Assembly (NCBI RefSeq): GCF_003333325.1
Contig: NZ_QOLC01000079.1
Coordinates: forward strand, 14,416-78,415
Direction of reading: 5' to 3'
DNA from: Candidatus Ulvibacter alkanivorans
GTDB lineage: Bacteria > Bacteroidota > Bacteroidia > Flavobacteriales > Flavobacteriaceae
DNA length: 64,000 nucleotides
Shown here: piece after piece, positions 1,055 to 63,776 of the stretch
Position numbering within the stretch: the first letter of the stretch is position 1
Layout of the letters: each line of letters opens with the position of its first letter
The notes under the pieces: generated by a model
What the model saw: the letters and a program-made list of their open reading frames with translations, nothing else
Told to the model about the DNA's origin: nothing
Database searches by the model: none
Translations under genes and position numbers: made by a program

Positions 1055-2431
1055 TTACAGATGAATTACTTCACCGTAGGCATCGGCTGTAGCTTCCATC
1101 ACGGCCTCACTCATGGTAGGGTGTGGATGTACAGCTTTTAATACTTCATGTCCTGTGGTCTCTAATTTTCGACCAAGAACAGCTTCAGCAATCATATCGG
1201 TTACTCCGGCGCCAATCATATGGCAGCCAAGCCACTCACCATACTTAGCATCATAAATTACTTTTACAAATCCGTCTTTGGTTCCTGCGGCACTCGCTTT
1301 ACCGCTGGCTGAAAATGGAAATTTACCAACTTTCAATTCGTATCCGGCTTCTTTTGCCTGCTTTTCGGTCATCCCTACACTGGCAATTTCCGGTGTGGCG
1401 TAAGTACAGCCCGGTATGTTGCCATAATCTAATGCCTCTACGTGTTCTCCCGCGATCTTCTCTACGCAAATTATACCTTCGGCAGATGCTACATGTGCTA
1501 AAGCAGGACCCGGAACCACATCACCAATGGCATAATAACCGGGGATATTGGTTTGGTACCAATCGTTTACGATGATCTTGTCCTTATCGACAACGATTCC
1601 GACATCTTCTATGCCTATATTTTCTAAATTTGAGGTAATACCAACCGCAGAAAGCACGATATCTGCTTCTAGTGTTTCTTCTCCTTTTTTCGTTTTAACT
1701 GTCGCTTTAACGCCTTTTCCTGAAGTATCGAGTTTTTCTACGGAAGCGTTTGTCATCACTTTGATCCCTGCCTTTTTAAAGGAGCGTTCAAATTGCTTTG
1801 ACACTTCTTCATCTTCTAGCGGTACTAAGGTTGGAAGGTATTCTACGATGGTCACTTCGGTACCCATACTGTTATAGAAATGAGCAAATTCTACGCCTAT
1901 GGCACCACTTCCTACCACGATCATGCTTTTTGGTTGCTTATCGAGCGACATAGCTTCTCTATATCCAATCACTTTTTTACCGTCCTGCTTCAAATTAGGT
2001 AATTCTCTAGAACGCGCTCCGGTGGCAATAATTATATGATCGGCACTGTATTCTTTACCGTCTACTTCCACCTTCTTACCGGGTTTGAGCTTTCCGAAGC
2101 CATCAATAACATCGATCTTATTTTTCTTCATTAGGAATTGAACTCCTTTACTCATTCCATCTGCAACACCACGACTGCGCTCTATAACCTTTCCGAAGTC
2201 TTTATCAGCTTCCTTAACGGAAAGACCATAATCTTCGGCATGCTTTAAATAATCGAATACTTGAGCACTTTTAAGTAAGGCTTTTGTTGGGATACAACCC
2301 CAATTAAGACAGACACCACCTAGATTTTCCTTTTCTATAACTGCAGTTTTAAATCCTAATTGTGACGCTCTAATCGCGGTAACATACCCGCCCGGGCCAC
2401 TTCCTAACACTATAATATCGTATTTACTCAT
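1055..2431 (-). CDS. lpdA: dihydrolipoyl dehydrogenase (E3)
   Basis: FAD/NAD-dependent flavoprotein that reoxidises dihydrolipoyl groups of the pyruvate and 2-oxoglutarate dehydrogenase complexes and of the glycine cleavage system. It has 458 residues, normal for the family. Visible motifs are the FAD-binding GSGPGGY (10-16), the redox disulfide GGVCLNWGC (Cys41 and Cys46), a second nucleotide-binding GSGAIGVEF near 175, and the C-terminal HPHPTMSEA that supplies the catalytic His-Glu pair. The start ATG at 2431 gives the canonical MSKYDIIVLG. The gene has its own terminator and stands alone between aroQ and the msrB operon. The glycine cleavage T-protein gene, which could share E3, lies far away at 40.6 kb. 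Identification is secure. Confidence 0.96.
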   Translation of the reverse strand: MSKYDIIVLGSGPGGYVTAIRASQLGFKTAVIEKENLGGVCLNWGCIPTKALLKSAQVFDYLKHAEDYGLSVKEADKDFGKVIERSRGVADGMSKGVQFLMKKNKIDVIDGFGKLKPGKKVEVDGKEYSADHIIIATGARSRELPNLKQDGKKVIGYREAMSLDKQPKSMIVVGSGAIGVEFAHFYNSMGTEVTIVEYLPTLVPLEDEEVSKQFERSFKKAGIKVMTNASVEKLDTSGKGVKATVKTKKGEETLEADIVLSAVGITSNLENIGIEDVGIVVDKDKIIVNDWYQTNIPGYYAIGDVVPGPALAHVASAEGIICVEKIAGEHVEALDYGNIPGCTYATPEIASVGMTEKQAKEAGYELKVGKFPFSASGKASAAGTKDGFVKVIYDAKYGEWLGCHMIGAGVTDMIAEAVLGRKLETTGHEVLKAVHPHPTMSEAVMEATADAYGEVIHL

Positions 2432-2511
2432 ATTCTTGTTTTAAGTCACTAATTTGTGGACACGAAATTACAAAATGTCTGCGTAATGAAATAGAAAAGG
2501 CGTAAAAAACA

Positions 2512-2548
2512 AAATTCCGACATTCAGATTTGTTGAATGCCGGAATTT
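2512..2548 (-). terminator. terminator of the msrB operon
   Basis: A 14-bp stem with one mismatch (AATTCCGACATTCA against TGAATGCCGGAATT). On the minus strand it is followed by TTTTGTTTTTT, just after the stop of the distal msrB gene. Confidence 0.75.
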
Positions 2549-2567
2549 AATTTGATGGTATCCCTAT

Positions 2568-2969: not shown

Positions 2970-3453
2970 TATTATTCGGGATAAAATCTAATGCGGCGCC
3001 ATTAACACAGTGACGTTTGCCGGTGGTTTCCGGCGGACCATCATCAAAGACATGTCCTAGGTGACCCCCACAGGTGGCACAATGTTCTTCGACCCGCGTG
3101 TAGCCAATTTTATTATCGGTAGAGTACGCCACATTACCTTCTATAGCACGATCAAAACTGGGCCAGCCGGTACCGCTATCAAATTTGTGTTCTCCTTCAA
3201 ATAGGGGAGTTTCACAAGCTGCACACACATAGGTGCCCGGTTCGTACTTTTTGTTTAGCTCACTTGAAAAGGGAGGTTCGGTACCTGCTTCTCTAAGAAT
3301 ATGAAATTCCTCTTCGGAAAGTTCTGCCCTCCATTCGGCTTCGGTCTTTTGAACTTTAAATGCGGTATCTTCCTTATCATCAGTGTTGTCCTGTGCGGGC
3401 GATTTACAACTGAATAAGGCCAATGCAAGCCCAAATAATATTAACTTTTTCAT
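2962..3453 (-). CDS. msrB: peptide-methionine (R)-S-oxide reductase, lipoprotein copy
   Basis: A second MsrB, 163 residues, with a lipoprotein signal (hydrophobic core, then LFSC with Cys16). It should therefore be anchored on the periplasmic side. After a short acidic linker comes a full MsrB domain: CAAC (Cys77, Cys80), HCATCGGH, GHVFDDGP and the catalytic Cys149 in KRHCVNG. The GWPSF segment reads SGTGWPSF, with Thr where the cytoplasmic copy has Cys, so the two enzymes probably differ in how the catalytic Cys is recycled. Gene order is lipoprotein (3476-3970), this gene, then cytoplasmic msrB, all on the minus strand with a 22-base gap and an 8-base overlap. Confidence 0.93.
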   Translation of the reverse strand: MKKLILFGLALALFSCKSPAQDNTDDKEDTAFKVQKTEAEWRAELSEEEFHILREAGTEPPFSSELNKKYEPGTYVCAACETPLFEGEHKFDSGTGWPSFDRAIEGNVAYSTDNKIGYTRVEEHCATCGGHLGHVFDDGPPETTGKRHCVNGAALDFIPNNNE

Positions 3454-5079: not shown

Positions 5080-6399
5080 ATGGTCAACCTTCCTAAAGGC
5101 AGTAAGAAATTACTGCATGCTTGGGCTTTTTACGACTGGGCGAATTCGGTGTATAGTCTCGTTATTGCATCTGCAATATTCCCTATTTTCTACGGAGCAC
5201 TAACACTTACCAAAGAGAATGGAAAGATAATAGACGATACGGTTACTTTTCTGGGGATCGATTTTAACAACGACACCTTAATTAGCTATGTGACAGCTGC
5301 CGCTTTTTTGGTGGTTTCGATATTGAGTCCGTTGCTAAGCGGAATCGCGGATTACGTTGGAAACAAAAAAGTGTTTATGAAGTTCTTCTGTTACTTGGGA
5401 GCACTTTCGTGTATTGGTTTGTTTTGGTTTTCGATGGACCATTTGTGGTTTGGGCTCTTGTGCTACTTTTTAGCATTAATAGGATTTTGGGCCAGTCTTG
5501 TGTTTTACAATTCTTACCTACCAGATATTGCCTTTCCCGAACAACAAGACCGCATAAGTGCCAAGGGATATTCTCTAGGCTATATTGGTAGTGTGATATT
5601 ACTGCTGGTGTGTCTGGCAATGATCCTTATGCATGAAACTTTCGGTTTTGAAGACGAAGGGCTCCCCACGCGATTGTCTTTTGTCCTTACCGGCCTGTGG
5701 TGGATCGGGTTTAGTCAATATACCTATTATTACCTTCCGAAGGGAAATAAAAAAGCAACATTTACGAGAAACTTATTGTTCAATGGTTTTAAAGAACTAC
5801 GAACGATATGGCGAAGCTTAAAGGATAACATCCAATTAAAACGATATCTTCTCGCGTTCTTTGTCTACAGCATGGCTGTACAAACCATAATGTTGGTAGC
5901 CACGTATTTTGGAATCGAGGAATTAGAGTGGGGGGATACCGATGCTACCACCGGACTCATAGTAAGTATATTGCTTATTCAATTGGTTGCAGTGGTAGGA
6001 GCTATGCTAACGTCTCGTTCTTCTGCTCGCTTCGGAAATATTCCTACACTCATTGTACTAAACTTGATCTGGATCGGAATCTGCGTATACGCTTATACCA
6101 TCACGACACCCGTACAATTTTATGCGACCGCCTCGGTAGTAGGTTTGGTCATGGGAGGAATACAGTCATTATCAAGATCTACCTATTCAAAACTTATTCC
6201 CGAGAACGCTATAGACACAGCTTCCTACTTTAGTTTTTATGATGTTTCTGAAAAAATCGGGATCGTAATTGGGATGTTTAGTTACGGTTATGTCGCTCAA
6301 TTGACCGGAAGCATACGTTATGCTATTTTATTTTTTATTCTATTCTTTATCGTGGGCGTCATTTTGTTAGTAAGGGTCCCTCGAAATTCTATCAAATAG
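5080..6399 (+). CDS. UMF1-family MFS transporter
   Basis: About 439 residues with roughly twelve hydrophobic segments. The N-terminal AWAFYDWANS signature is typical of the UMF1/Atg22-like branch of the major facilitator superfamily. Loops carry short charged motifs such as YVGNKK after the second or third helix. It is an inner-membrane transporter whose substrate cannot be read from sequence; efflux of amino acids has been proposed for relatives. I chose ATG 5080 (MVNLPKGSKK) because the longer frame from 5023 would translate through the terminator of the preceding gene. The DUF6252 lipoprotein gene follows after 49 bases and may be cotranscribed. Confidence 0.85.
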   Translation: MVNLPKGSKKLLHAWAFYDWANSVYSLVIASAIFPIFYGALTLTKENGKIIDDTVTFLGIDFNNDTLISYVTAAAFLVVSILSPLLSGIADYVGNKKVFMKFFCYLGALSCIGLFWFSMDHLWFGLLCYFLALIGFWASLVFYNSYLPDIAFPEQQDRISAKGYSLGYIGSVILLLVCLAMILMHETFGFEDEGLPTRLSFVLTGLWWIGFSQYTYYYLPKGNKKATFTRNLLFNGFKELRTIWRSLKDNIQLKRYLLAFFVYSMAVQTIMLVATYFGIEELEWGDTDATTGLIVSILLIQLVAVVGAMLTSRSSARFGNIPTLIVLNLIWIGICVYAYTITTPVQFYATASVVGLVMGGIQSLSRSTYSKLIPENAIDTASYFSFYDVSEKIGIVIGMFSYGYVAQLTGSIRYAILFFILFFIVGVILLVRVPRNSIK

Positions 6400-9746: not shown

Positions 9747-10275
9747 CTCGATTTGTTTTAAGTGATTTAATTTCTTCCATAGTTTGAATTACGTGTTGTA
9801 ATAGTTCGATCCGGCTCTGGAAGTTAGAGATCATGGCATAGACAACGCGTTTGTCATTACCACTTTCTACCAGATCTAATTTTAGAGCATCATACTCTGT
9901 TTCAAGAATTGCAAGCTGTTCTAGTGCATCTTCAACCAATACTTTGGTGTCTTCTGCTTCCAAACTTTTTAAGGTTGCCAATTCTTCATTAATGGTTGTT
10001 ACAAAAAACGATTGGGTCTTTTCCATCTCGGGTGAAACACTTGCTAGGTCACCTTGTGCTGCTTCCGAAGTAAAGAAAGTAAACCCAAAGAACAACAATA
10101 CGGCTATCGATGCAGCAATTGAAAGTGGTTTCTTCCAAGCTATTTTTATGCTGCGAGCCTCTTGCGTTTGCTGTAACTTTTGCATAAAGCGATGTTCATG
10201 TCCGGAAGGTGTTTCATGTATATCGAAACAACCTTCTTGCTCTTTAAAGAATATGTCTAATTCGTCTTTCATCAT
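9730..10275 (-). CDS. probable anti-sigma factor, single-pass membrane protein
   Basis: 181 residues: a cytoplasmic N-terminus with the P-x-GHEHRFMQKL motif often seen at the start of such proteins in flavobacteria, one hydrophobic segment at about 51-68, and a mostly helical periplasmic part with coiled-coil-like heptads (EQLAILETEYDALKLDL). It lies 19 bases after an ECF sigma gene and overlaps the next exported-protein gene. This position and topology fit a membrane anti-sigma factor that holds the sigma factor until an envelope signal arrives. There is no recognisable zinc (ZAS) motif. The role is inferred from context and shape. Confidence 0.65.
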   Translation of the reverse strand: MMKDELDIFFKEQEGCFDIHETPSGHEHRFMQKLQQTQEARSIKIAWKKPLSIAASIAVLLFFGFTFFTSEAAQGDLASVSPEMEKTQSFFVTTINEELATLKSLEAEDTKVLVEDALEQLAILETEYDALKLDLVESGNDKRVVYAMISNFQSRIELLQHVIQTMEEIKSLKTNRDEITI

Positions 10276-10846: not shown

Positions 10847-11085
10847 ACAGCTGTTGTTTAGTATAAAGATAGGGGAAGTCTCGAATTGTTACACCTAAGA
10901 CAAAATTTCTTTTGTATTGCTTCGGAAAGGGCTGTCATGGTAGTCCACAGTATCATCTTAATTATAAAGGAAGGCTGGCATAACAATTGAATGAATAGCG
11001 TGGATATACGACTGAAGCTTCCGTAAATCGTTGGCTTTCAGAAAATATTATAAAAAAATTAATAATCATAATGCATTGTGCACCG

Positions 11086-11118: not shown

Positions 11119-13569
11119 ATGGCACGATCAAAAATAACTTCAATAGACAGTTTGTCACTGCAGGAATTAAAGGAAGAAGCAGAATTAATTCCTTTAATGT
11201 CTGCCGAAGATGAGGATGAAATGGAACGCGAGGAACTTCCCGAAGTTCTACCTATTCTTCCACTTCGCAATACCGTCCTTTTCCCGGGTGTTGTAATCCC
11301 GATTACAGCCGGACGTGACAAATCGATCAAACTGATTAATGAAACTAACAAAGGAAATAAGACCATAGGCGTCGTTTCCCAAAAAGAAGAGGCCGAAGAA
11401 GAGCCTAATAGCAAAGACATCAATACCATTGGAACGGTTGCTAAGATCTTACGGGTTTTAAAAATGCCCGATGGGAACACAACCGTCATCATTCAAGGGA
11501 AAAAACGATTTGAAGTTGCAGAAGTGATCACCAACGATCCTTATATGACTGCAACAGTACGGGGCGTTTCCGAAGCGAGACCCGCCAAAGAGAATCAAGA
11601 GTTCAATACCATCATCGATTCGATAAAAGAACTGGCCTTAGAGATCATTAAGGACAGCCCCAATATTCCTTCGGAAGCAGCTTTTGCCATAAAGAACATT
11701 GAAAGTAATTCGTTTTTGGTGAATTTCGTTTCTTCCAACCTAAATATTTCTGTAGAAGAAAAACAGAAGCTTTTAGAGATCAACGACCTTAAGGACCGCG
11801 CTCTGGAAACATTGCGCTTTATGAATATTGAACGACAAAAATTGTCGCTGCGTAATGACATCCAATCTAAGGTTCAAAGCGATATTAACCAACAACAGCG
11901 TGAGTATTTTTTAAATCAGCAGTTAAAGACCATTCAAGAGGAATTGGGTGGTTCTTCTTCCGAAGAAGAGATCGAAGAAATGCGTGTTCGTTCTAAGAAG
12001 AAAAAGTGGAACGAGACAGTAGATAAGCACTTTAACAAAGAGTTATCTAAACTACAACGTATGAATCCGCAGGTCGCCGAGTACAGCATTCAGCGTAATT
12101 ACTTAGATCTGGTGTTAGAATTACCTTGGGGTGAATACAGCAAAGATAAGTTCGATCTAAAACGGGCAAGAAAAATATTAGATCGCGATCACTACGGCTT
12201 GGACGATGTAAAAAAACGCATCATCGAATATTTGGCCGTGTTAAAATTGCGAAACGATATGAAATCGCCAATTTTGTGTCTATACGGACCTCCGGGAGTG
12301 GGGAAGACCTCGCTGGGAAAATCGGTAGCCGAAGCACTTGGACGCGAATATGTGCGCATGTCGTTAGGTGGATTGCGCGATGAAGCCGAAATTCGGGGAC
12401 ATCGAAAAACCTATATTGGCGCCATGCCCGGACGAATTATTAAGAATTTAAAGAAAGCCGGAACGAGCAATCCTGTGTTCGTGTTGGACGAGATCGATAA
12501 ACTATCGGTGGGAAGTCAAGGCGACCCGTCTTCAGCAATGTTAGAGGTGCTGGATCCGGAACAGAATAGCGCTTTTTATGATAACTTCTTAGAATTAGGG
12601 TATGACCTTTCTAAGGTAATGTTCATAGCTACATCTAATAGTTTAAGTACCATCCAGCCTGCTCTAAAAGATCGAATGGAGATCATACGTGTTTCCGGAT
12701 ATACCATTGAAGAGAAGGTAGAGATCGCGAAACGCCATTTACTTCCGAAGCAATTAAAAGAACATGGACTCACCAAGGACGATCTAAAGATCGCCAAACC
12801 ACAATTAGAGAAGATCGTAGAAGGCTATACGCGAGAAAGTGGTGTTCGTAGCTTAGAAAAACAGATCGCAAAAATGGTGCGATATGCTGCGATGAAGATC
12901 GCAATGGAGGAGGAGTACACTAAAAAGGTGACCAACGACATTATTATTGAAGCCTTGGGTGCTCCAAAAATGGAACGCAACAAATATGAGAATAACGACG
13001 TAGCCGGAGTGGTAACCGGGCTCGCTTGGACACGTGTAGGCGGTGATATCTTATTTATCGAGTCTACTTTATCTAAGGGAAAAGGAAATCTTACGATGAC
13101 CGGTAACTTGGGTAAGGTCATGAAGGAATCGGCCACCATCGCATTAGAATACATAAAATCGAATGCCGATAAGTTAGGCATCGACGGCGATGTATTCGAA
13201 AAGTACAACATTCACATTCACGTTCCTGAAGGAGCGACACCTAAGGATGGACCTAGTGCAGGAATCACCATGCTAACCTCCTTGGTTTCTCTGTTCACCC
13301 AACGCAAGGTCAAGAAAAGCATTGCTATGACAGGGGAGATCACGCTGCGAGGGAAAGTACTTCCTGTAGGTGGGATCAAGGAAAAGATATTGGCGGCAAA
13401 AAGAGCTCGTATTAAAGAGATCTTGTTATGTGAAGACAACAAACGGGATATCGATGAGATCAAACCGGAATACCTACAAGGACTTAAGTTTCACTATGTA
13501 AAGGAGATGAGCGATGTGTTAGAATTGGCCTTGACCAAAGAAAAGGTGAAAAATCCGAAACAGTTATAG
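11119..13569 (+). CDS. lon: ATP-dependent protease Lon
   Basis: 816 residues, full length. An N-terminal substrate-binding domain ([17 protein letters not shown]) is followed by a coiled-coil middle region, then an AAA+ module with Walker A GPPGVGKT at 390-397 and Walker [11 protein letters not shown]. The C-terminal protease domain has the catalytic Ser713 in KDGPSAG and a Lys near 756 in GGIKEK, the Ser-Lys dyad. Lon degrades misfolded and regulatory proteins in the cytoplasm. The flavobacterial N-terminus carries an acidic stretch ([12 protein letters not shown]) before the conserved domain. It is a single-gene unit with its own -7 element and a stem-loop after the stop. Identification is secure. 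Confidence 0.97.
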
Positions 13570-14716: not shown

Positions 14717-15411
14717 TGCATAAAATTACCATAGCTATAGACGGCTATTCATCTACCGGAAAAAGTACGATTGCCAAACAATTGGCAGACTGGTTGGATT
14801 ATGTCTATGTTGATACCGGAGCTATGTATCGGGCCGTAACCCTATATGCGATGGAAAACAGGTTTATTTCCGAAGCACATTTCGACAAACAAGCATTGAT
14901 ACAAGCGTTGCCAAACGTCTCCTTATCGTTCAAAAAGAACAGTGAGACGGGAAAAGCTGAGATCCATTTGAATGGCCGTAATGTAGAACCACTTATTCGC
15001 AGCTTGAAAGTTTCAGAATATGTGAGTCCGATAGCGACTGTTCCCGAAGTAAGAAAGAAATTGGTTGAGCAACAACAAGCTATGGGCGAGGGGCAAGGCG
15101 TGGTAATGGACGGCAGAGATATTGGTACCGTAGTCTTTCCGAAGGCAGCCTTAAAGATCTTTTTAAATGCATCTGCCGACGAACGCGCGAAACGTCGCTA
15201 TCGAGAATTGGTCGAGCGCGGAGAACTAGTCGCTTATACCGATGTCTTGGCCAATGTCATGGAACGCGACCACATTGACAGCACACGCAAAGATTCGCCA
15301 TTAAAAAAAGCCGAAGACGCCATCGAGATCGATAATAGCGAAATGAACCTGGAAGACCAATTTCATGTGATCCTACAGTTGGCAAAAGATCGTATCGCCG
15401 GTCGTGTTTAA
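14716..15411 (+). CDS. cmk: cytidylate kinase
   Basis: Phosphorylates CMP and dCMP with ATP in pyrimidine nucleotide recycling. 231 residues. The P-loop is GYSSTGKST at 10-18, followed by the substrate segment VDTGAMYRA, the GRDIGTVVFP motif and the ADERAKRR lid region. The start ATG shares a base with the porQ stop, so the two are probably cotranslated. There is no functional link between porQ and cmk beyond conserved order. The gene is followed by 325 bases with the rpsA promoter and leader. Identification is secure. Confidence 0.96.
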   Translation: MHKITIAIDGYSSTGKSTIAKQLADWLDYVYVDTGAMYRAVTLYAMENRFISEAHFDKQALIQALPNVSLSFKKNSETGKAEIHLNGRNVEPLIRSLKVSEYVSPIATVPEVRKKLVEQQQAMGEGQGVVMDGRDIGTVVFPKAALKIFLNASADERAKRRYRELVERGELVAYTDVLANVMERDHIDSTRKDSPLKKAEDAIEIDNSEMNLEDQFHVILQLAKDRIAGRV

Positions 15412-50515: not shown

Positions 50516-50691
50516 AGTAGCGTTTTTCTAAAAGCTGTATGTTGTGGTTACTTCGGAAAGTTTTGAATTTAAAAGTAACCAAAGTTCTAGTGATATGACC
50601 TTGGTTAACACTTTGAACATTTGATAATGGTAACTAAGTGACTAACGCTTAAGGCTATGATACAACAAAAATCGCAAGTGTGCCTAAATAA

Positions 50692-53509: not shown

Positions 53510-56038
53510 ATGGCTGAAGGTGAAAAATTGATCCCTATCAACATTGAAGATGAAATGAAATCGGCATACATCGATTATTCGATGTCCGTCATTGTGTCAC
53601 GTGCCTTACCCGATGTTCGTGACGGTATGAAGCCAGTACACAGACGTGTTCTTTTTGGTATGCATGAGTTGGGTATTCGCGCAACCGGTGCACATAAAAA
53701 ATCGGCGAGAATCGTTGGTGAAGTGTTAGGTAAGTATCACCCACACGGTGACACCTCTGTATATGATGCAATGGTGCGTATGGCACAAGAATGGAGTTTG
53801 AGATATATGTTGGTAGATGGGCAAGGAAACTTTGGTTCGATAGATGGTGATAGTCCGGCAGCAATGCGTTATACAGAAGCTCGTATGCAGCGTATTTCAG
53901 AAGATATGCTGGCCGATATCGATAAAGAAACTGTAGACCACCAACTTAACTTCGACGATACTTTAAAAGAACCTACCGTACTTCCTACACGAGTTCCCGG
54001 TCTATTGATCAACGGAGCGTCTGGTATTGCAGTAGGTATGGCAACCAATATGCCCCCTCATAACTTAACTGAAGTCATAGATGGTACCATTGCGTATATC
54101 GATAATCACGAGATCGAGATCGACGAATTGATGCAGCACATTAAAGCACCTGATTTCCCTACAGGTGGTGTCATCTACGGGTACGATGGAGTGCGTGATG
54201 CATTTCATACAGGTCGTGGAAGAGTAGTGATGCGCGCTAAGGCTCGGTTCGAAGAAGTAAATGGTCGAGAGTGTATCATTGTTTCTGAAATCCCGTATCA
54301 GGTGAACAAAGCCGATATGATCAAAAAAACAGCCGATCTCATTAACGAGAAGAAGATCGAAGGAATTTCAAACATTCGTGATGAGTCTGATAGAAAAGGA
54401 ATGCGTATCGTTTATATTTTAAAGCGTGATGCCATTCCAAATATCGTATTAAACACCTTATTTAAATATACAGCACTTCAATCGAGCTTTAGTGTCAACA
54501 ATATTGCCTTGGTAAAAGGGCGTCCACAAATGCTCAATTTAAAGGACCTGATCCATTATTTTGTGGAGCACCGTCATGAAGTGGTAGTACGTCGTACCGA
54601 GTATTTACTTCGGAAGGCAAAAGAACGCGCACACATTCTTGAAGGACTTATAATTGCTTCAGATAATATCGACGAAGTAATCCGACTTATCCGTGCATCT
54701 TCGAATGCCGATGAAGCCCGAGAAACCTTAATGAAGACCTTCGAGCTTTCAGAAATACAAGCAAAGGCGATCGTCGAAATGCGTTTGCGTCAATTAACAG
54801 GTCTTGAACAAGACAAACTGCGTACAGAGTATGAAGAGTTGATGAAAACCATAGCCGATTATGAGGACATTCTTGCTAAAAAAGAACGCAGAATGGATAT
54901 CATAAAGGAGGAACTAGCCGAAATTAAAAGCAAATACGGGGATGAGCGTCGCTCTACGATCGAATACGCCGGTGGAGATGTGAGCATTACCGATCTTATT
55001 CCAGATGAGAAAGTGGTAATTACCATTTCGCATGCTGGTTATATAAAACGCACTTCTTTAACCGAATACAAAACACAGAATAGAGGTGGCGTAGGTCAAA
55101 AAGCCAGTGCCACACGAAATGAGGACTTCCTGGAACATTTGTTCGTAGGAACAAATCATCAATATATGTTGTTCTTTACTCAAAAAGGAAAATGTTTCTG
55201 GATGCGTGTTTTTGAAATTCCGGAAGGAAGCAAAACCTCGAAAGGGCGTGCGATACAAAACCTGATCAATATTGAGCCCGATGATAACGTCAAAGCCTTT
55301 ATATGTACACAGGACTTGAAGGACGAGGACTATATAAATAATCACTTTGTGATCATGGCCACTAAAAAAGGTCAGGTTAAGAAAACACCGCTTGAGCAAT
55401 ATTCTAGACCACGAACCAACGGAATAAATGCAATAACGATCAAGGAAGATGATATGTTGTTGGAAGCTAAGTTGACTACCGGTGACAGCCAAGTCATGTT
55501 GGCAGTTCGTTCCGGAAAAGCAATTCGTTTTGAAGAAGAGAAGACCCGACCTATGGGAAGAAATGCTTCAGGGGTTAGAGGTATAAAATTAGACGATAAG
55601 CATGATGAAGTGATTGGTATGATCGCTATCAATAATGACGAATCTGACATTTTAGTAGTTTCCGAAGGAGGCTACGGAAAACGTTCAAGTATAGAAGATT
55701 ACCGTATAACAAATCGTGGAGGAAAAGGAGTAAAAACCATTAATGTTACCGAAAAAACCGGTAAATTAGTAGCAATCAAGAATGTAACCGACGATGATGA
55801 TCTAATGATCATTAATAAATCGGGAATCGCGATTCGAATGGCGGTAGACGACCTTCGCGTTATGGGGCGCGCAACACAAGGGGTGCGTCTTATTAAGGTA
55901 AGAGAAGATGATGCTATCGCTGCTGTTGCTAAAGTGAAACGCGACGAGGACGATGTAGATGAAAATGGCGAAGACACAGATAATGGCACCACTCTTGATA
56001 ATGAGGAGACACAAACTGAAAACAACGATAAAAATTAA
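53510..56038 (+). CDS. gyrA: DNA gyrase subunit A
   Basis: 842 residues. It has the breakage-reunion domain with [33 protein letters not shown], the quinolone region [15 protein letters not shown], and the catalytic Tyr121 in [10 protein letters not shown]. The C-terminal domain has six blade-like repeats with a GyrA-box-like [10 protein letters not shown], which separates it from ParC. An acidic tail ([12 protein letters not shown]) closes it. Position 82 (E. coli Ser83) is Thr, which I recall as the normal residue in flavobacteria, so it is no sign of resistance. The TPR gene follows after 12 bases. Identification is secure. Confidence 0.96.
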
Positions 56039-57366: not shown

Positions 57367-58113
57367 TACAATTCTTTTAATAACGCGAAGTTTGTGGGTG
57401 TGTGTGCGCTTTTCGTAATTAAAGATCCCGGTATGGTCTATCCGGTCTATGCGTACCTTACCGTGTGCATGAATTATATAATGATCTTTCATAATGATAC
57501 CCACATGGGTGATGGCACCTTCGGCATTATCGAAGAAGGCTAGATCACCAGGCTCGCTTTCCTCTATAAAGCTCAATGCCTCTCCTTGCGTCGCTTGTTG
57601 GCTGGCATCACGTTTAAGTCGATGTCCGTTCAATTTATACACCATTTGGGTAAAGCCACTGCAATCGATTCCAAAAGGCGTTTTTCCTCCCCATAAGTAA
57701 GGCGCATTTAGATAGAGTAGTGCGGTTTCTACTAAGTGTTTCTTCGGAAACTTCTTACTTACCATTTTTCCGTCGAAAGAATGCTTCAAATAGTTGCTAG
57801 CATTCAGCGTGCTACCCATGCATATAGATAATAATTGCCCTTCTTCCGAAGCGACAAAATCGACCAAATCGGAAGATAAACGCGGAGTTTGCTTTCTAAG
57901 ATCTGTAAAGATCTCTTCAGAAATAAATACAAATTGCTTAGTGTCTATCCAACCCTCATACCCATCAAAATCTAAACGAATACGGCTCCATTTCTTTCGG
58001 TGTTCTAACACCTTAAATTGTTCGCCATACAAAACCTGCGTTACCATTTCACTGGTATCAGCGGCTTCAGCACGCAATGGAACAATGCTTAAATGACAAA
58101 TGCCGTATTTCAT
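57364..58113 (-). CDS. C40 (NlpC/P60) peptidase with SH3-like domain
   Basis: 249 residues. A bacterial SH3-like domain at the N-terminus (SIVPLRAEAADTSEMVTQVLYGEQFKVLE, YEGWID) is followed by an NlpC/P60 cysteine peptidase: catalytic Cys151 in FGIDCSGF, His203 in ITHVGI, and His215 in YIIHAHG. No signal peptide is visible, so, as with YkfC-type enzymes, it may cut recycled muropeptides (gamma-D-glutamyl bonds) in the cytoplasm. The thiolase gene lies 27 bases upstream on the same strand. The stop lies in the terminator stem. Enzyme class is sure; substrate is inferred. Confidence 0.9.
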   Translation of the reverse strand: MKYGICHLSIVPLRAEAADTSEMVTQVLYGEQFKVLEHRKKWSRIRLDFDGYEGWIDTKQFVFISEEIFTDLRKQTPRLSSDLVDFVASEEGQLLSICMGSTLNASNYLKHSFDGKMVSKKFPKKHLVETALLYLNAPYLWGGKTPFGIDCSGFTQMVYKLNGHRLKRDASQQATQGEALSFIEESEPGDLAFFDNAEGAITHVGIIMKDHYIIHAHGKVRIDRIDHTGIFNYEKRTHTHKLRVIKRIV

Positions 58114-58140: not shown

Positions 58141-59319
58141 CTAATTTCGTTCGATCACCATAGCCGATGCACCTCCACCGCCATTACAAATAGCCGCAGC
58201 TCCTATTTTACCGTTGTTTTGTTTAAGCACATTTAGAAGTGTGATTAAAATGCGAACACCGCTACAACCTAATGGGTGACCTAATGAAACGGCTCCGCCA
58301 TTAATATTAACTTTTTCGGCATCAAGTCCTAGAATCTTGATATTTGCCAATCCGACAACCGCGAATGCTTCGTTGAATTCAAAATAATCGACATCCTCCT
58401 TGGTAATGCCTGCTTTGTCTAAAGCCTTTGGCAATGCCTTTGAAGGAGCTGTGGTAAACCATTTTGGTTCGGTTGCTGCATCTGCGTAGCTCTTAATGGT
58501 TGCTAAAGGTGTAAGTCCTAATTCGTTTGCTTTTTCCTCGCTCATCAAGATCATCGCGCCGGCCCCATCGTTAATGGTAGAGGCGTTGGCAGCGGTAACT
58601 GTTCCGTCTTTGCTAAATGCGGGACGCAGCGATGGTATTTTATCCATCTTCACATTCTTATATTCTTCGTCTTCGGAAACTATTACAGGTTCACCGCGAC
58701 GCTGTGGTACCGATACAGGCACTACTTCGTCCTTAAACTTCCCGTTTGACCATGCTTTGGCCGAACGATTATAGGATTCGATCGCAAAAGCATCTTGATC
58801 TTCACGAGAAAAATTATGTTCGGTCGCACAAAGGTCGGCACATACCCCCATGGCATTGTGATCATAAGCATCTACCAATCCGTCTTTTTGCATTCCATCG
58901 ATCAAAGTAGCTGGACCAAATTTTTGTCCGTTTCGCATATGAACGTAATGTGGAATATTACTCATGCTTTCCATACCTCCTGCAACGACCACATCGGCAT
59001 CGCCTAATGCGATAGCTTGGGCTGCGTGCATTACTGCCTTCATTCCTGAAGCACACACTTTATTAACCGTGGTACACGGAACTGTTTCCGGGATACCTGC
59101 GCTTAAAGCCGCTTGCCTAGCCGGTGCTTGACCAACCCCTGCCTGTACAACATTACCCATAAAAACTTCTTGAACTTTTGAAGGGTCTAAATTGATCTTA
59201 TCTAAGGCACCTTTAATGGCTGCCGATCCAAGTTGTACGGCTGTTAAAGAGGAAAGACTTCCCATAAAACTACCTATTGGGGTTCTGGTTGCTGAAACAA
59301 TTACGACTTTTTTACTCAT
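58141..59319 (-). CDS. acetyl-CoA C-acyltransferase (thiolase)
   Basis: 392 residues, full thiolase length. The acyl-accepting Cys89 is in NKVCASGMKA, FEFNEAFAVV precedes the His of GHPLGCSGVRI, and the second Cys lies in CNGGGGASA. The gene may make acetoacetyl-CoA or act in the last step of beta-oxidation; the strong similarity to acetyl-CoA acetyltransferases (AtoB type) favours the former. No other fatty-acid gene is near. It reads towards the NlpC/P60 gene (27-base gap). Identification of the family is secure. Confidence 0.93.
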   Translation of the reverse strand: MSKKVVIVSATRTPIGSFMGSLSSLTAVQLGSAAIKGALDKINLDPSKVQEVFMGNVVQAGVGQAPARQAALSAGIPETVPCTTVNKVCASGMKAVMHAAQAIALGDADVVVAGGMESMSNIPHYVHMRNGQKFGPATLIDGMQKDGLVDAYDHNAMGVCADLCATEHNFSREDQDAFAIESYNRSAKAWSNGKFKDEVVPVSVPQRRGEPVIVSEDEEYKNVKMDKIPSLRPAFSKDGTVTAANASTINDGAGAMILMSEEKANELGLTPLATIKSYADAATEPKWFTTAPSKALPKALDKAGITKEDVDYFEFNEAFAVVGLANIKILGLDAEKVNINGGAVSLGHPLGCSGVRILITLLNVLKQNNGKIGAAAICNGGGGASAMVIERN

Positions 59320-59486: not shown

Positions 59487-61532
59487 ATGAACAACTTATT
59501 ATCTCTCTTCTCCAAGAATCAATCGCTTATATACAAGACGTTTTTGTTTGTAGGGGCTACGCTGTTAATTATTTATTTGTTGCCCAAAGGCGGACAGTTC
59601 AAGTATAACTTCCAAAAGGGGAAGCCTTGGCAATATGAGAATTTGTATGCTCCGTTTAGCTTTACCATAAAGAAAGAGAAAGAGACGCTTGAAAAAGAGC
59701 GGGAGGCGATACGTGCTACCAACATACCTTATTTTGAGTATGATGCCGAAATAGCCGAAACAAGTAAGGAAGCGTTTTCAGATCGATTTGAATCTGTTTA
59801 TGAAGACACGCTTTACGATATTTCAAAATTTCGATTAAAACAAATTGGAACACAGATCCTTAACGACATCTACAAATACGGTGTAACCGAAGAAGTGCAC
59901 GCCTACGAACAAGACAAGCTTATCTATTTAAAGAACGACAACAAGATAGAAGAGATAAGCTACTCCCAGCTTTTTAAAAAGGAGGATCTACCCTCCAAGA
60001 TTGAACGAGAAGCGATCCGGGCCAATGCAGATAACACCATCACATTTTTACGTCAATTACTCTCACAAACCGTTAAAAGCAATGTGAGCATGAATGTCAA
60101 GCTCACCGAGGCTACCTTAGAATCGGAGTTGAATGCGATCAACCCAAATCGAGGCATAATCGAAAAGGGTGGGCGAATCATTGCAAAAGGAGAAGTAGTA
60201 GAAGGCGACACTTATCAAATTCTCAATTCGCTTAAGGCCGAGTTTCAATCGCAAGTATGGAGCAAGTCTAATTATACCTGGTTGCTCGTAGGATATTCTA
60301 TCTTAGTTTCTTTGGTCTTCTTGATGTTGTTCTTGTTTCTGAAGAAATATCGAACTTCCATTTATAACAACAATACCAAAGTAACCTTTATCTTTTTTAA
60401 CGTTATCCTAATGGTTTTTTTAACGACCATAGTCGTTAAGCTAGACGCCGCTTATGTTTACGTTGTTCCCTTGTGTATTTTACCGCTGGTACTCAAGGCT
60501 TTTTTTGATCCTAGGCTTGGGTTGTTCGTGCATGTATTAACGCTTTTGCTTTTGGGATTTGTGGTGCCCAACAGTTTCGAATATCTGTTTTTACAGATCA
60601 TCGCCGGAGTTGTGACCATACTAACTATTTCAGAATTATATAAACGAGCCAATCTGTTTATCTCGGTAGCGCAAATTACAATGATCTATATTATTGGGTA
60701 TTTCGCTTTCTTTATTATCCAAGAAGGGAATATCGAATTAATTCAATGGGCCACTTTTGGATATTTTATTCTGAATGGCCTCGCGACATTGTTTGCACAT
60801 CCGTTGATCTATTTATATGAAAAACTCTTCGGAATGGTTTCCGACGTCTCACTACTGGAGTTAAGCGACACCAATTCTAAATTACTAAAAGAGCTTTCTA
60901 ACAAAGCCCCAGGAACATTCCACCATTCGCTTAATGTCGCCAATCTTGCTGAAGCAGCTGCCAACGAAATAGGCGCCAATGCCATGTTGATTCGTGTTGG
61001 TGCTTTATATCACGATATTGGTAAAATGAACAATCCAACGATGTTCACCGAAAATCAAGTGAATTCTATCAACACTCACAATGAGTTAGAGCCTAAAGAA
61101 AGTGCCGCCATTATTATTGATCATGTTATAAAAGGCATCGAAATTGCCCGAAAAAACAAGCTTCCCGATCGAGTAATCGATTTTATTCGTACACACCATG
61201 GAACCAGTTTGGTGTATTATTTCTATAAAAAAGAAAAGGAATTGAACGGTAGCGCAAACCCCGAAGATTTTATGTATCCCGGACCCATTCCTTTTTCTAG
61301 GGAAACGGCTATTTTAATGATGGCCGATAGTGTTGAAGCGGCAAGCAAAAGCTTAAAAGAGCCGAGTTCCTCGAAAATCGACACTTTCGTAGAAAAGATC
61401 ATTAACTCGCAAATGGAGCAAGGACAATTTCTCAACGCTAATATTACCTTTAAAGAGATTCAGCTTATTAAAAAGGTCTTAAAGAAAAAATTGAACAACA
61501 TATACCATCTACGAGTAGAATATCCGGAATAA
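59487..61532 (+). CDS. pgpH: 7TM-HD phosphohydrolase, PgpH-type c-di-AMP phosphodiesterase
   Basis: 681 residues. One N-terminal membrane helix is followed by an extracytoplasmic helical domain of about 230 residues (7TMR-HDED), seven membrane helices (about 268-455), and a cytoplasmic HD domain: TFHHSLNVANLAEAAA, LYHDIGKM (the HD pair), and FIRTHHGTSLVYYFY, with MMADSVEAASK near the end. This is the PgpH layout; these enzymes hydrolyse the second messenger c-di-AMP to pApA and respond to outside signals. No cyclase gene is in the window. It ends six bases from the convergent aminotransferase-like gene. Confidence 0.92.
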   Translation: MNNLLSLFSKNQSLIYKTFLFVGATLLIIYLLPKGGQFKYNFQKGKPWQYENLYAPFSFTIKKEKETLEKEREAIRATNIPYFEYDAEIAETSKEAFSDRFESVYEDTLYDISKFRLKQIGTQILNDIYKYGVTEEVHAYEQDKLIYLKNDNKIEEISYSQLFKKEDLPSKIEREAIRANADNTITFLRQLLSQTVKSNVSMNVKLTEATLESELNAINPNRGIIEKGGRIIAKGEVVEGDTYQILNSLKAEFQSQVWSKSNYTWLLVGYSILVSLVFLMLFLFLKKYRTSIYNNNTKVTFIFFNVILMVFLTTIVVKLDAAYVYVVPLCILPLVLKAFFDPRLGLFVHVLTLLLLGFVVPNSFEYLFLQIIAGVVTILTISELYKRANLFISVAQITMIYIIGYFAFFIIQEGNIELIQWATFGYFILNGLATLFAHPLIYLYEKLFGMVSDVSLLELSDTNSKLLKELSNKAPGTFHHSLNVANLAEAAANEIGANAMLIRVGALYHDIGKMNNPTMFTENQVNSINTHNELEPKESAAIIIDHVIKGIEIARKNKLPDRVIDFIRTHHGTSLVYYFYKKEKELNGSANPEDFMYPGPIPFSRETAILMMADSVEAASKSLKEPSSSKIDTFVEKIINSQMEQGQFLNANITFKEIQLIKKVLKKKLNNIYHLRVEYPE

Positions 61533-61538: not shown

Positions 61539-62846
61539 TTACTTGTCGTTGAGTACCGCTTTAATGGCCGAATCCAGTATCTCGATCCCTAGGTCTATTT
61601 CTTCTTTAGTAATAGACAGCGGCGGTGCAATACGAAAAACCCCACCAAACCCTTGTACGCGAACTATGTTCATACTTAGTCCTAATTCAAGACATTTAGC
61701 CGAAATTTTATTTCCCAAGACGACATCCATTTCACGGGTTTCCCGATCTTTCACGATCTCTAATCCCAATAACAATCCTTTTCCTCGAACGTCACCAATG
61801 CATTCGTAGGTTTCTTTGAGATCTAATAATCCCGTTTTTAAGTAGTTGCCCATTTCAGTTGCACGCTCAGCCATTTTTTGCTCGTGTAGAATCTCCAACA
61901 TAAGTATACCAAAGGTGGCACAGAATGGATCCGAAACATGAGAGGTCACATAAATAAACCCGTTCTCATAACATTTTTGTTCGATCTCCGGACTCGTAAT
62001 GGTTGCTGCTAGTGGGAGTCCGCCACCCAAGGTCTTCGACAAGGTTAAGAAATCGGGAGTTACATCAAATGCTTCAAAAGCGAATGTATGTCCCAACCGC
62101 CCAAGCGCAGTTTGTGCCTCATCAAAAATAAGAAGCAATCCTCTTTCATCGCACAGTTCCTTTAATCGCTTTACATACGATTTAGTCAAAGGAATGATCC
62201 CTGCCGCACTCAATACAGGTTCTGCGATCATTGCGGCATAAGCGCCTACAGTTTGTTGATCTACCATTTCCATTCCAACCTCCAAGCAGGTATTATCGCA
62301 ACGACCTTTACAATGCTGAATTGGGCATCGATATTCATAAGGTGCAGGTAACATTAAACTTCCTGCCATAGTAGGGCCATACCCTTTCCTTGTTTTTGAA
62401 TAGGTTGGCGATTGAGCTCCGGCTGTCATGCCGTGCCAAGAACCGGCAAATCCAACGATTTCAAAACCGGAAGTCGCTAATTTTGCCATTCGAAGCGCTA
62501 CTTCATTAGACTCAGATCCGGTATTTACAAACATACATTTGGATAATGATTCTGGTAGTTCCTGTGCAAGTTTTTCTGCTAATTCGAGTACCGGAGGCGA
62601 GAGGATAGAACTTAATAGATGGATTGCCTTATCTCCCGATTGTGTCAGTGCTGCTACGATCTTAGGATGATTGTGACCAAACACCGAGCACATCTGTCCC
62701 GAGGTAAAATCTAAAATGGCTTTACCTTGTTGATTATAGATATAACTCCCCGAGGCCTTTTCGGCAATAAATGGCGAAAATTCCCCACAGTAACGAATCA
62801 GTAATGAATCGATTTCCTTCTTTGCTGTGTCTTTTAAATCCTGCAT
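61539..62846 (-). CDS. 2,2-dialkylglycine decarboxylase homologue (class III PLP enzyme)
   Basis: 435 residues of the class III aminotransferase fold, with strong likeness to the Burkholderia 2,2-dialkylglycine decarboxylase: LDFTSGQM (Gln51), NTGSESNEVALRMAK, VGFAGSWHGMT (Trp137), FDEAQT, PLP Lys271 in LSKTLGGGLPLA, TSHVSDP, RGKGLLLGLEIVKDR, and VFRIAPPL with the substrate Arg. The phosphate Thr of the reference enzyme is Ser302 here. An insert carries four cysteines (Cys174, 179, 183, 187) that could bind metal. Such enzymes decarboxylate 2-aminoisobutyrate and transaminate to pyruvate. An AraC-type regulator lies 50 bases upstream on the same strand. The family is sure; the substrate is inferred. 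Confidence 0.85.
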   Translation of the reverse strand: MQDLKDTAKKEIDSLLIRYCGEFSPFIAEKASGSYIYNQQGKAILDFTSGQMCSVFGHNHPKIVAALTQSGDKAIHLLSSILSPPVLELAEKLAQELPESLSKCMFVNTGSESNEVALRMAKLATSGFEIVGFAGSWHGMTAGAQSPTYSKTRKGYGPTMAGSLMLPAPYEYRCPIQHCKGRCDNTCLEVGMEMVDQQTVGAYAAMIAEPVLSAAGIIPLTKSYVKRLKELCDERGLLLIFDEAQTALGRLGHTFAFEAFDVTPDFLTLSKTLGGGLPLAATITSPEIEQKCYENGFIYVTSHVSDPFCATFGILMLEILHEQKMAERATEMGNYLKTGLLDLKETYECIGDVRGKGLLLGLEIVKDRETREMDVVLGNKISAKCLELGLSMNIVRVQGFGGVFRIAPPLSITKEEIDLGIEILDSAIKAVLNDK

Positions 62847-62896
62847 GTTGTTTTTTATGCAAGATGAAGCAATTAATTTCTAAAAAATTGTAAAAT

Positions 62897-63640
62897 CTAA
62901 TCATTGTGAACGAGTTCCGCGTATTGCTTCGGAATCATACCTACATGCGTTTTAAAATATTTATTGAAGTGGCTTTGGTCGTAAAAGCCGGTTTCGTACG
63001 CGACATCGGTAAATGAAGCTACGATCTCTTCTTTTATAAGTTCTTTAGCCTTTTCAATTCGAAGATTCAACAAATACCGAATAGGAGAGATCCCTACATG
63101 CGACAAAAACTGCCTGTTAAAATGGCTGCTGCTCATATGCACCACATCACTTAACTCTTCCAAATGAATGGTCCGACTATAATTTGAATTTAAAAACTCA
63201 AGGGACCTAATTAGTTTATCTGAAGTGTCACCAATCGCAGTCTGATCTTGTTGTATGTAGTTTTTAAAAATTTTCGGAATAACAGGTGCCTCATTAGTTT
63301 TGGTAGAATGTTCTCTAATAGCATCGAACCATGAAATAAACGCTTTCTTCACTAGTGGGTTCCCTTGTTGTATGTGCAAAAATGCATCCGATCGTTTATG
63401 AATAAGGGCGTAAGAGCGTGGCACTCGAATTACCTTGTAATAAAAAGAATGTTCAACTACGGTCTGATGCGCCATAAAGGGAGGTATTACAACCAATTGG
63501 TCGGGATGTAAGCGAATCTCACCATTCTTAAATTGCAACAAAGCGGTTCCACCCAATATATATGAGAAAGTATATAGATTAGGATGTAAATGTTCGGGAA
63601 AATAATGTGGTCTAGTATATCGTATGGTCTCACATTCCAT
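62897..63640 (-). CDS. AraC family transcriptional regulator
   Basis: 247 residues. The N-terminal cupin-like ligand domain (TRPHYFPEHLHPNLYTFSYILGG; QLVVIPPFMAHQTVV) is followed by two C-terminal helix-turn-helix motifs (IHLEELSDVVHMSSSHFNRQFLSHVG and FTDVAYETGFYDQSHFNKYFKTHVG). The second is the strongly conserved AraC signature. It is encoded directly upstream of the dialkylglycine decarboxylase homologue in the same direction and probably regulates it in response to an amino acid. The promoter should lie in 63641-63780, where no clear -7 match stands out. Ligand unknown. Confidence 0.9.
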   Translation of the reverse strand: MECETIRYTRPHYFPEHLHPNLYTFSYILGGTALLQFKNGEIRLHPDQLVVIPPFMAHQTVVEHSFYYKVIRVPRSYALIHKRSDAFLHIQQGNPLVKKAFISWFDAIREHSTKTNEAPVIPKIFKNYIQQDQTAIGDTSDKLIRSLEFLNSNYSRTIHLEELSDVVHMSSSHFNRQFLSHVGISPIRYLLNLRIEKAKELIKEEIVASFTDVAYETGFYDQSHFNKYFKTHVGMIPKQYAELVHND

Positions 63641-63776
63641 ATCATGCCGTTTTGTTATGGAAAATTACTAAAAAGAAACTGAACCAACGTTTTGTCGGGA
63701 ATGATTTCCGAAGCAAGAGAAATTAAGCTTTTTAAACGATACTAGGGAATCCTGTAATTTTTCCGCGTTGAAAATA

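What the first reader, a model, noticed from the sequence alone, without database searches (positions are those of the whole stretch)
2092..63714. Strongly over-represented octamer CTTCGGAA / TTCCGAAG
At least 56 copies in 64 kb, about one per 1.1 kb, against roughly two expected from base composition (about 40 % GC, my own estimate). Copies are split evenly between strands (29:27). Within genes the word occurs in all three frames (Ser-Glu, Leu-Pro-Lys, Phe-Gly, Leu-Arg-Lys, including the otherwise rare CGG codon), so codon or dipeptide bias does not explain it. The core TTCSGAA is an odd palindrome. Even strand use argues against a polar Chi- or KOPS-like signal and is more like a DNA uptake word; a binding site for a chromosome protein or a methylation site are alternatives. 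Highly expressed or surface genes (rpsA, GIN/DUF4097, the lipoprotein pair) lack it. I know of no described uptake signal in flavobacteria.
Basis: partly seen in the sequence, partly recalled or inferred. Interest (0 to 1): 0.8.

Follow-up and report, generated by a model that had tools for sequence, protein, structure and literature searches.

The report
Clade-wide DNA word, likely uptake signal
An eight-letter DNA word is repeated about once per kilobase on both strands of this marine flavobacterium's DNA, tends to be kept at the same places in related genera regardless of what the genes encode, and may be a tag by which these bacteria recognise their own kind's DNA, although that function is untested.

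Summary
CTTCGGAA occurs 56 times in 64 kb (29:27; 2.65 expected) and is the window's most over-represented octamer, 12-fold above a synonymous-codon shuffle and raised in all six frames: a DNA-level signal. It is not local. Named Aequorivita, Ulvibacter, Cochleicola and Aureitalea genomes hold 503-1539 copies; an unnamed relative holds 2187; most other relatives are at or below a control word. Orthologous genes keep it in place within word-rich genomes (138 of 317 comparisons, 69 expected), but rarely share it with word-poor ones (3 of 651). It shows no replication polarity and no RNA hairpin, and is not a true palindrome (CTTCGGAAA 32, CTTCCGAAA 1). Dokdonia, nested beside the clade, lacks it and carries another iterated word. 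Best reading: an uptake-signal-like self-recognition word for a pilus-free competence system like that of Riemerella. ComEC and DUF5689 proteins occur in all word-rich genomes tested, a pilus-type ATPase in 1 of 24. Uptake is inferred, not shown. A HIP1-like repair or methylation word, a recombination signal, or a chromosome-protein site remain open.

The parts
2092..2099 (-). word copy
2191..2198 (-). word copy
3312..3319 (+). word copy
5735..5742 (-). word copy; kept in 2 of 3 word-rich relatives compared
6030..6037 (+). word copy
10063..10070 (-). word copy
10920..10927 (+). word copy outside the main ORFs
11568..11575 (-). word copy (lon-like gene)
11669..11676 (+). word copy (lon-like gene); kept in 6 of 8 word-rich relatives compared
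11958..11965 (-). word copy (lon-like gene)
12743..12750 (-). word copy (lon-like gene); kept in 7 of 9 word-rich relatives compared
14868..14875 (-). word copy
15137..15144 (-). word copy; kept in 0 of 1 word-rich relative compared
18437..18444 (-). word copy; kept in 4 of 9 word-rich relatives compared
21187..21194 (-). word copy
21487..21494 (-). word copy; kept in 0 of 1 word-rich relative compared
22684..22691 (+). word copy
23298..23305 (+). word copy
24535..24542 (-). word copy
25585..25592 (+). word copy; kept in 0 of 3 word-rich relatives compared
26234..26241 (+). word copy
26246..26253 (+). word copy
26429..26436 (+). word copy
26520..26527 (-). word copy
29103..29110 (+). word copy
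29454..29461 (-). word copy
31439..31446 (-). word copy
31825..31832 (+). word copy
32677..32684 (+). word copy
32705..32712 (+). word copy
34475..34482 (-). word copy
37689..37696 (+). word copy
38876..38883 (+). word copy
39200..39207 (-). word copy
41189..41196 (+). word copy
42044..42051 (-). word copy
42254..42261 (-). word copy
43135..43142 (+). word copy
43370..43377 (+). word copy
43567..43574 (-). word copy
44804..44811 (+). word copy
46127..46134 (+). word copy
46950..46957 (+). word copy
47005..47012 (+). word copy
47721..47728 (-). word copy
48761..48768 (-). word copy
50551..50558 (+). word copy outside the main ORFs
52654..52661 (-). word copy
54608..54615 (+). word copy (gyrA-like gene); kept in 1 of 8 word-rich relatives compared
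55660..55667 (-). word copy (gyrA-like gene); kept in 0 of 1 word-rich relative compared
57742..57749 (+). word copy
57844..57851 (-). word copy
58671..58678 (+). word copy
60827..60834 (+). word copy
62927..62934 (+). word copy
63706..63713 (-). word copy outside the main ORFs, near the window's end

Best explanation
CTTCGGAAR is a lineage-wide DNA word of the Aequorivita/Ulvibacter/Cochleicola/Aureitalea clade of Flavobacteriaceae, kept by a process that reads double-stranded DNA (shown: enriched in all frames, kept at orthologous places more than expected, concentrated in this clade; aligned relatives differ from it by substitutions). The process is most likely sequence-biased DNA uptake during natural transformation (inferred). 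A surface receptor, perhaps part of the pilus-free competence apparatus described in Riemerella, would bind fragments carrying the word in either orientation. ComEC would bring them in and the usual DprA/RecA route would recombine them, so alleles with the word would spread and accumulate, as uptake sequences are thought to do in Neisseria and Haemophilus. Tolerance at positions 3, 5 and 7 and relative strictness at 1, 2, 4, 6 and 8 fit graded binding by a protein (inferred).
For: Density in the window is 0.88 per kb, on both strands, in genes and between genes. All six frames are enriched in the window and in 318-400 kb samples of four relatives: 50 against 4.2, 167 against 21.5, 146 against 18.7, 79 against 15.7 and 111 against 21.6; also 38 against 7.2 in Aureitalea and 17 against 3.8 in pooled Salinimicrobium, Gramella and Christiangramia loci. 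Whole genomes: 31 of 122 relatives of G003 (control count at least 50; 26 of 148 dropped for low counts) have at least 3 times the reversed-word control, up to 2187 against 322; the median of the other 91 is 0.62. Within word-rich genomes the word is kept in 138 of 317 directed comparisons (128 sites, 69 expected; other anagrams pooled 5526 of 26421); with word-poor ones in 3 of 651, 113 expected. No polarity. Dokdonia, sister to this clade with one enriched row at its base, lacks the word and carries another, like a change of dialect. ComEC is in 35 of 35 genomes, 24 of them word-rich. DUF5689, a domain of an essential Riemerella competence protein (PMC8459023, sections 19-20 read), is in 31 of 31 enriched and 72 of 91 other genomes and in 8 of 8 further word-rich ones. 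R. columbina prefers its own DNA (PMC7965970, section 16).
Against: My searches turned up no report of competence or uptake in this clade (listing only). ComEC and DUF5689 are nearly family-wide, so they do not track the word; in G110 the DUF5689 match is weak and in a longer frame. A type IV pilus/T2SS ATPase is above cut-off in only 3 of 35 genomes, 1 of 24 word-rich, so a Neisseria- or Haemophilus-type receptor is unlikely and the supposed receptor is unidentified. Density between genes is lower than in genes in all four relatives, whereas I recall uptake words being common in spacers. One-off neighbours at strict positions are mostly not enriched; I recall that near-matches are common around known uptake words. 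Near-absence in word-poor relatives is not special to this word: it ranks 392nd of 555 anagrams there. Enrichment runs from 1.6 to 5.8 times control among the 28 genomes listed first as relatives of G003, cause unknown. The label 'enriched' needs 6 changes on the RpsA tree (24 of 500 shuffles as low), so the history is not one clean gain. No inverted pairs of copies were seen: the three closest window pairs (12, 28 and 55 bases) are same-strand.
Confidence: 0.42

Rival explanations
1. HIP1-like word: a DNA methyltransferase or mismatch-repair process in this clade converts near-matches to CTTCGGAA or protects it, so the word accumulates without being a recognition signal for uptake.
For: HIP1 in cyanobacteria is iterated genome-wide and is replaced by alternate HIPs in some strains with matching methyltransferases (PMC4390886, abstract and passages read), as Dokdonia seems to have replaced this word. 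Non-enrichment or mild depletion of neighbours at several strict positions would suit conversion of near-matches.
Against: HIPs are palindromes; this word is asymmetric (CTTCGGAAA 32, CTTCCGAAA 1). Tolerance at three internal positions does not look like a methyltransferase site. I did not search for a methyltransferase that tracks the word.
Confidence: 0.2
2. Recombination or repair signal (Chi-like) read by an AddAB/RecBCD-type enzyme.
For: Frequent, coding and non-coding, lineage-specific and kept in place, all of which a Chi word could show.
Against: 42 of 85 copies on the leading-type strand in samples of the complete relative G033; the 75 % that I recall for E. coli Chi is rejected (p = 3.5e-7). 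Approximate dyad flanks are not expected of a word read on one strand. The skew arcs in G033 come from 20 samples of 20 kb and are rough. AddAB/RecBCD genes were not searched.
Confidence: 0.15
3. Binding site of an abundant chromosome-organising protein, present some 400-2200 times per genome.
For: Graded positional tolerance and a partial dyad (roughly TTnCTTCSGAAGnAA) suit a protein dimer; no origin-terminus trend over 20 samples of G033 (Spearman p 0.33).
Against: Segregation signals that I recall from other bacteria are far fewer or polarised; loss in the nested Dokdonia lineage would need the protein to be lost or re-targeted.
Confidence: 0.13
4. By-product of codon, dipeptide or RNA constraints (for example C(UUCG)G hairpins).
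For: CTTCGG is the classic tetraloop core (recalled).
Against: All six frames exceed synonymous shuffles, and sense and antisense copies are similar in number (21 and 29 in the window's genes); no pairing between positions 0 and 7 around CTTCGG in any of five sets.
Confidence: 0.02

Closest known systems
DNA uptake sequences of Neisseriaceae (DUS) and uptake signal sequences of Pasteurellaceae (USS)
   Same: Short word at high density (0.2-0.9 per kb in the five sets), on both strands, in genes and spacers, asymmetric, without replication polarity in my tests, and with related lineages using another word (DUS dialects, PMC3630211, passages read; other DUS/USS traits recalled).
   Different: Uptake is unshown here; a type IV pilus-type ATPase is not found above cut-off in 32 of 35 genomes; no inverted terminator pairs were seen in the window, which that paper reports in high numbers for DUS.
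HIP1 and alternate HIPs of cyanobacteria
   Same: Very high, genome-wide, lineage-bound iteration; replacement by another word in some lineages (PMC4390886, abstract and passages).
   Different: HIPs are palindromes, generally with matching methyltransferases; this word is asymmetric and no methyltransferase has been linked to it.
Chi sites
   Same: Over-represented octamer-size word, lineage-specific.
   Different: No strand polarity (42 of 85); no test of recombination.
KOPS / AIMS (architecture-imparting octamers; listing of PMC5993296 seen, traits recalled)
   Same: Octamers spread over the chromosome.
   Different: Those are marked by strand polarity and a rise towards the terminus; neither was found here.

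Membership tests
DUS/USS uptake words | Word strongly over-represented genome-wide on both strands, independent of reading frame | tested here: met
DUS/USS uptake words | Preferential uptake or transformation by DNA with the word | not testable with these tools
   needs an assay
DUS/USS uptake words | Competence machinery with type IV pilus/pseudopilus receptor | tested here: not met
   PF00437 above cut-off in only 3 of 35 genomes (G005, G017, G029; 1 of 24 word-rich), though ComEC is in 35 of 35. Only the ATPase family was searched, no pilin family
DUS/USS uptake words | Different words (dialects) in related lineages, following phylogeny | tested here: inconclusive
   Word concentrated in one half of the tree but with 6 changes of label; in Dokdonia a long palindrome that may be another kind of element
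HIP1-type iterated palindromes | Palindrome | tested here: not met
   CTTCGGAAA 32 against CTTCCGAAA 1 in the window; 85 against 16, 70 against 15 and 52 against 19 in three relatives
HIP1-type iterated palindromes | Cognate orphan methyltransferase in the genomes | not tested
   no modification data; no methyltransferase search made
Chi | Orientation bias towards the leading strand (as recalled for E. coli) | tested here: not met
   42 of 85
Chi | Attenuates RecBCD/AddAB and stimulates recombination | not testable with these tools
   biochemistry needed
KOPS/AIMS | Strand skew by replichore and gradient to the terminus (recalled) | tested here: not met

The most novel reading that the evidence does not exclude
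Marine Flavobacteriaceae have self-recognition DNA uptake words read by a pilus-free, outer-membrane receptor system, and lineages switch words: CTTCGGAAR in the Aequorivita/Ulvibacter/Aureitalea clade, a TTACGCTTTCGCGAAAGCGTAA-like word in Dokdonia. To my knowledge these would be the first uptake dialects in Bacteroidota and a second, independent machinery for sequence-biased uptake.
Probability: 0.33. Interest if true: 0.9.

Novelty: new variant of a known kind. Interest (0 to 1): 0.74.

Why it matters
As I recall, uptake biased by a short unmodified word is established only in two proteobacterial families, both with pilus-based uptake. Riemerella transforms without a recognised pilus and prefers its own DNA, on a basis that is unknown (PMC7965970 section 16, PMC8459023 sections 19-20 and passages). 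A clade-wide, DNA-level word with a clear consensus gives a direct, cheap test: does DNA with the word transform a clade member better? If yes, it opens the receptor question; if no, it is a HIP1-like unsolved word in a second phylum, with cultured species.

Tried and rejected
Strand polarity seemed strong in the hit listings (long runs of +), but fetched sequence showed no such runs: G003:C1 400 kb has 49 + and 70 - in random order, so I take the runs for a listing cap. The RNA tetraloop idea: no pairing between the flanks. A symmetric dyad YTTC-N-GAAR as the whole explanation: spacer-1 dyads are enriched 2.4-6-fold in the five main sets (window, G067, G016, G033, G003), but the centre is strongly oriented. 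Two forms of DUF5689 (stronger and weaker profile scores) were compared with word density by eye only; no clear split, dropped. Strong words in other rpsA loci: those of L035, L062 (CCGTTGCA), L046, L008 and most of L027 are tandem or regularly spaced repeats; AAGGCGAA in L055, AGGAGTTG in L075 and CATCTTCA in L033 are dispersed but almost all on one sense of the genes and mostly in one or two frames. Codon-shuffled scans of pooled Winogradskyella, Aquimarina and Maribacter-type loci and of G017, G064, G105 and G093 gave weaker candidates, such as GCTTAGAA 26 against 5.3 and AGGCTTAT 22 against 5.4, not followed up.

Limits of the counts. The whole-genome control is the reversed word, which is not codon-neutral. 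In one search comparisons within the clade are directed, so a kept pair counts twice; by ratio the word ranks 41st of 567 anagrams there (some anagrams rest on few sites), and 392nd of 555 against word-poor relatives. The word-poor set included L032 and L041 (ratio about 2) and L053 and L080 (no whole-genome count); the word-rich set included G002 and G004 (ratio about 2). In one search the 'other' set held every locus outside my word-rich list, some with ratios of 1.5-2.7, and only 9 and 6 distinct window sites were compared. The RpsA tree used 56 of the 80 loci plus the window; 24 were left out beforehand for brevity. Searches looked at part of each genome only.
Full report
What is there. 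The window holds 56 exact CTTCGGAA words, 29:27 by strand, against a mean of 2.65 and a maximum of 7 in 100 dinucleotide shuffles. By an order-2 Markov model it is the most over-represented octamer (56 against 4.5), and the next three overlap it. Position 9 is A 32, G 18, T 6, C 0, and T is favoured at positions -1 and -2, so the fuller form is about TTnCTTCGGAAR. It is only a partial palindrome: CTTCGGAAA 32 against CTTCCGAAA 1 in the window, and 85:16, 70:15 and 52:19 in G067, G016 and G003.

It is a DNA-level signal. Shuffling synonymous codons within each gene leaves 4.2 words in the window's genes against 50 observed (largest of 100 shuffles 8). Samples of four relatives gave 167 against 21.5 (G067, 318 kb), 146 against 18.7 (G016, 400 kb), 79 against 15.7 (G033, 400 kb) and 111 against 21.6 (G003, 400 kb). 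Each of the six frame and strand classes is above expectation in every set, some on few copies. Density in the window is about the same in genes (0.87 per kb) and between them (0.93); between genes it is lower in all four relatives (0.41 against 0.60, 0.39 against 0.43, 0.10 against 0.23, 0.17 against 0.31).

Shape of the motif. After masking exact copies, variants at positions 3, 5 and 7 are mostly enriched (typically 1.5- to 6.6-fold; C at position 5 mostly is not), while changes at positions 1, 2, 4, 6 and 8 mostly are not, and several in the window are below expectation on small counts. Exceptions at the strict positions reach 2.5-fold (T at position 6 in G033 and G003) and 1.8-fold (T at position 4 in G003). 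In G016 the A-centred form CTTCAGAA is almost as abundant as the G-centred one. This looks like the tolerance of a DNA-binding protein rather than an all-or-none enzyme site (inference). There is no complementarity between positions 0 and 7, so the C(UUCG)G RNA hairpin is not the reason.

No polarity. Strands are 29:27 in the window and 60:47, 73:96 and 49:70 in contiguous 159-400 kb stretches of relatives, and strand runs are random. Spacing is close to Poisson, slightly even in the window (CV 0.85) and slightly clustered in G016 and G003 (KS p about 0.03). In 20 samples of the complete 3.52-Mb G033, 42 of 85 copies are on the leading-type strand, with no significant trend along the replichore. 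Genome-wide strand parity (13832:13752 in the 31 enriched genomes) is not by itself evidence, as two replichores would cancel.

Where it occurs. No genome is held for the window. The window's RpsA falls in a well-supported set of 17 rows with Aequorivita, Ulvibacter-labelled MAGs, Cochleicola and Aureitalea. Against the reversed word as control, 31 of 122 relatives with enough counts are at least 3-fold enriched, 13 are at 1.5-3, and the median of the 91 not enriched is 0.62. Examples are Aequorivita soesokkakensis 1037:178, Aureitalea L0-47 1539:193, Cochleicola gelatinilyticus 1495:187 and the unnamed G067 2187:322. The named Aequorivita, Ulvibacter, Cochleicola and Aureitalea genomes hold 503-1539 copies. 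Salinimicrobium and Gramella sp. AN32 are about 3-fold. Winogradskyella, Aquimarina and Maribacter are near or below 1; some others, such as Salegentibacter, are at 1.5-2.1. On the tree all 14 rows with ratio at least 3 lie in one half of 32 rows, a split with modest support (88/74). The enriched label needs 6 changes among the labelled rows, against a shuffled mean of 8.8 (24 of 500 shuffles as low), so it is clustered but not one clean gain.

The places are kept. Comparing orthologous genes where the peptide is unchanged, the window's word was kept in 20 of 43 comparisons with word-rich relatives (9 sites, 7.3 expected) and in 2 of 135 with all other loci (6 sites, 18.4 expected). Across the window and 18 word-rich genomes it was kept in 138 of 317 directed comparisons over 128 sites (69 expected). 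With 41 other loci it was kept in 3 of 651 (36 sites, 113 expected). Anagrams of the word, pooled, were kept in 5526 of 26421 (0.21) within the clade; the real word (0.44) ranks 41st of 567 by ratio, anagrams with few sites scattering widely. Against word-poor relatives its loss is not exceptional: it ranks 392nd of 555. So the telling result is retention inside the clade, not absence outside it.

A replacement in Dokdonia. The Dokdonia rows, sister to the 17-row clade with one enriched Ulvibacter-labelled row at their base, have the word at 0.24-0.31 of control. Instead TTTCGCGAAA occurs 481-1195 times per genome against 9-23 for its control in 18 of 18 genomes listed first as relatives of G031, and 595:8 in G065. 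That all 18 are Dokdonia is inferred from the order of listing; three are named so. The element is longer (about TTACGCTTTCGCGAAAGCGTAA), and 53 of 94 copies in 300 kb are not wholly inside ORFs, though only 15 % of that sequence is intergenic, so it may be of another kind. The replacement resembles DUS dialects (PMC3630211) and alternate HIPs (PMC4390886), without deciding between them.

Machinery. Competence in this order is known in Riemerella, where no pilus homologue was detected. Genes essential there include ComEC, DprA, ComF, RecA, a DUF5689/DUF5017 protein with an outer-membrane neighbour, a helix-hairpin-helix protein and a DUF1343 protein (PMC8459023, sections 19-20 and passages). 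Equal amounts of R. columbina DNA compete with its transformation while equal amounts of R. anatipestifer or E. coli DNA do not (tenfold excess does); a raw k-mer search for its signal listed only A/T-rich words (PMC7965970, section 16). Here ComEC is in 35 of 35 genomes. DUF5689 is in 111 of 148 relatives at E 0.001 (109 over the cut-off), in all 31 enriched ones (weakly in G110), and in 26 of 26 further genomes, 8 word-rich and 18 of the Dokdonia set. In G007 the protein also shows a DUF5017 match below its cut-off. Pilus-type ATPases pass the cut-off in 3 of 35 genomes, 1 of 24 word-rich. DprA, ComF, the helix-hairpin-helix protein and pilins were not searched. These genes are too widespread to track the word, so they show only that a pilus-free uptake route is plausible.

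Judgement. Shown: a real, DNA-level word, concentrated in one clade, kept in place there, unpolarised. Inferred: that a protein reads it, and that the process is uptake. I put uptake at 0.42, a HIP1-like repair or methylation word at 0.2, a recombination signal at 0.15 and a chromosome protein site at 0.13. It works like an uptake word on most sequence tests (lower density in spacers and few near-matches speak against), but I do not file it as a DUS/USS, because the pilus-type machinery that goes with those was tested by its ATPase and is mostly missing.

Literature. No paper in the library holds the word as a separate term (whole-word search of CC-licensed PMC only). The listings of searches showed no flavobacterial uptake word. 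For PMC7965970 and PMC8459023 I read passages and named sections; for PMC4390886 the abstract and passages; for PMC3630211 and PMC2843746 passages.

Noticed in passing
L189-L203 (G188), L039, L056, L063, G065: Dokdonia-type genomes carry about 480-1200 copies of a palindrome around TTTCGCGAAA (control 9-23; 595:8 in G065), consensus near TTACGCTTTCGCGAAAGCGTAA, in genes and strongly in spacers. The listing of a search for the word showed no paper on it in Dokdonia.
   Followed up: partly
window 17849-18125: Short array of about 88-base near-repeats between the rpsA-like gene and the ORF at 18152 (a 127-aa ORF is listed over it), with TTCTGCATGACATTCCCCTTGTCATTCCGAG-type sequence; several of its 11-12-mers top the window's long-word list.
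   Followed up: no
window and G067: A second, weaker word GAGTCCGR is enriched in both (window AGTCCGG 16 against 4.0; G067 CGGACTC 86 against 16.6 by codon shuffle).
   Followed up: no
window: GATC-containing words (GAGATC, GATCGA) are also above the codon null in the window and GAGATCA in G012.
   Followed up: no
G016 (L129-L148): CTTCAGAA, often with a preceding G (GCTTCAGAAA), is nearly as abundant as CTTCGGAA, as if the word drifts within the clade.
   Followed up: partly
pooled Winogradskyella loci; G017: Other lineages show weaker candidate words by codon shuffle: GCTTAGAA 26 against 5.3 and AGGCTTAT 22 against 5.4.
   Followed up: no
window 35306-37620: Two neighbouring ORFs share a 76-base stretch (76 % identical) that reads DNADVDGDTNTDDG by eye and have no Pfam match; neither holds the word.
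   Followed up: no
G017, G005, G029: The only three of 35 genomes with a pilus/T2SS ATPase match over the cut-off; the word is depleted in G017 and G029 but enriched in G005. In G029 the ComEC match is split over two open frames.
   Followed up: no
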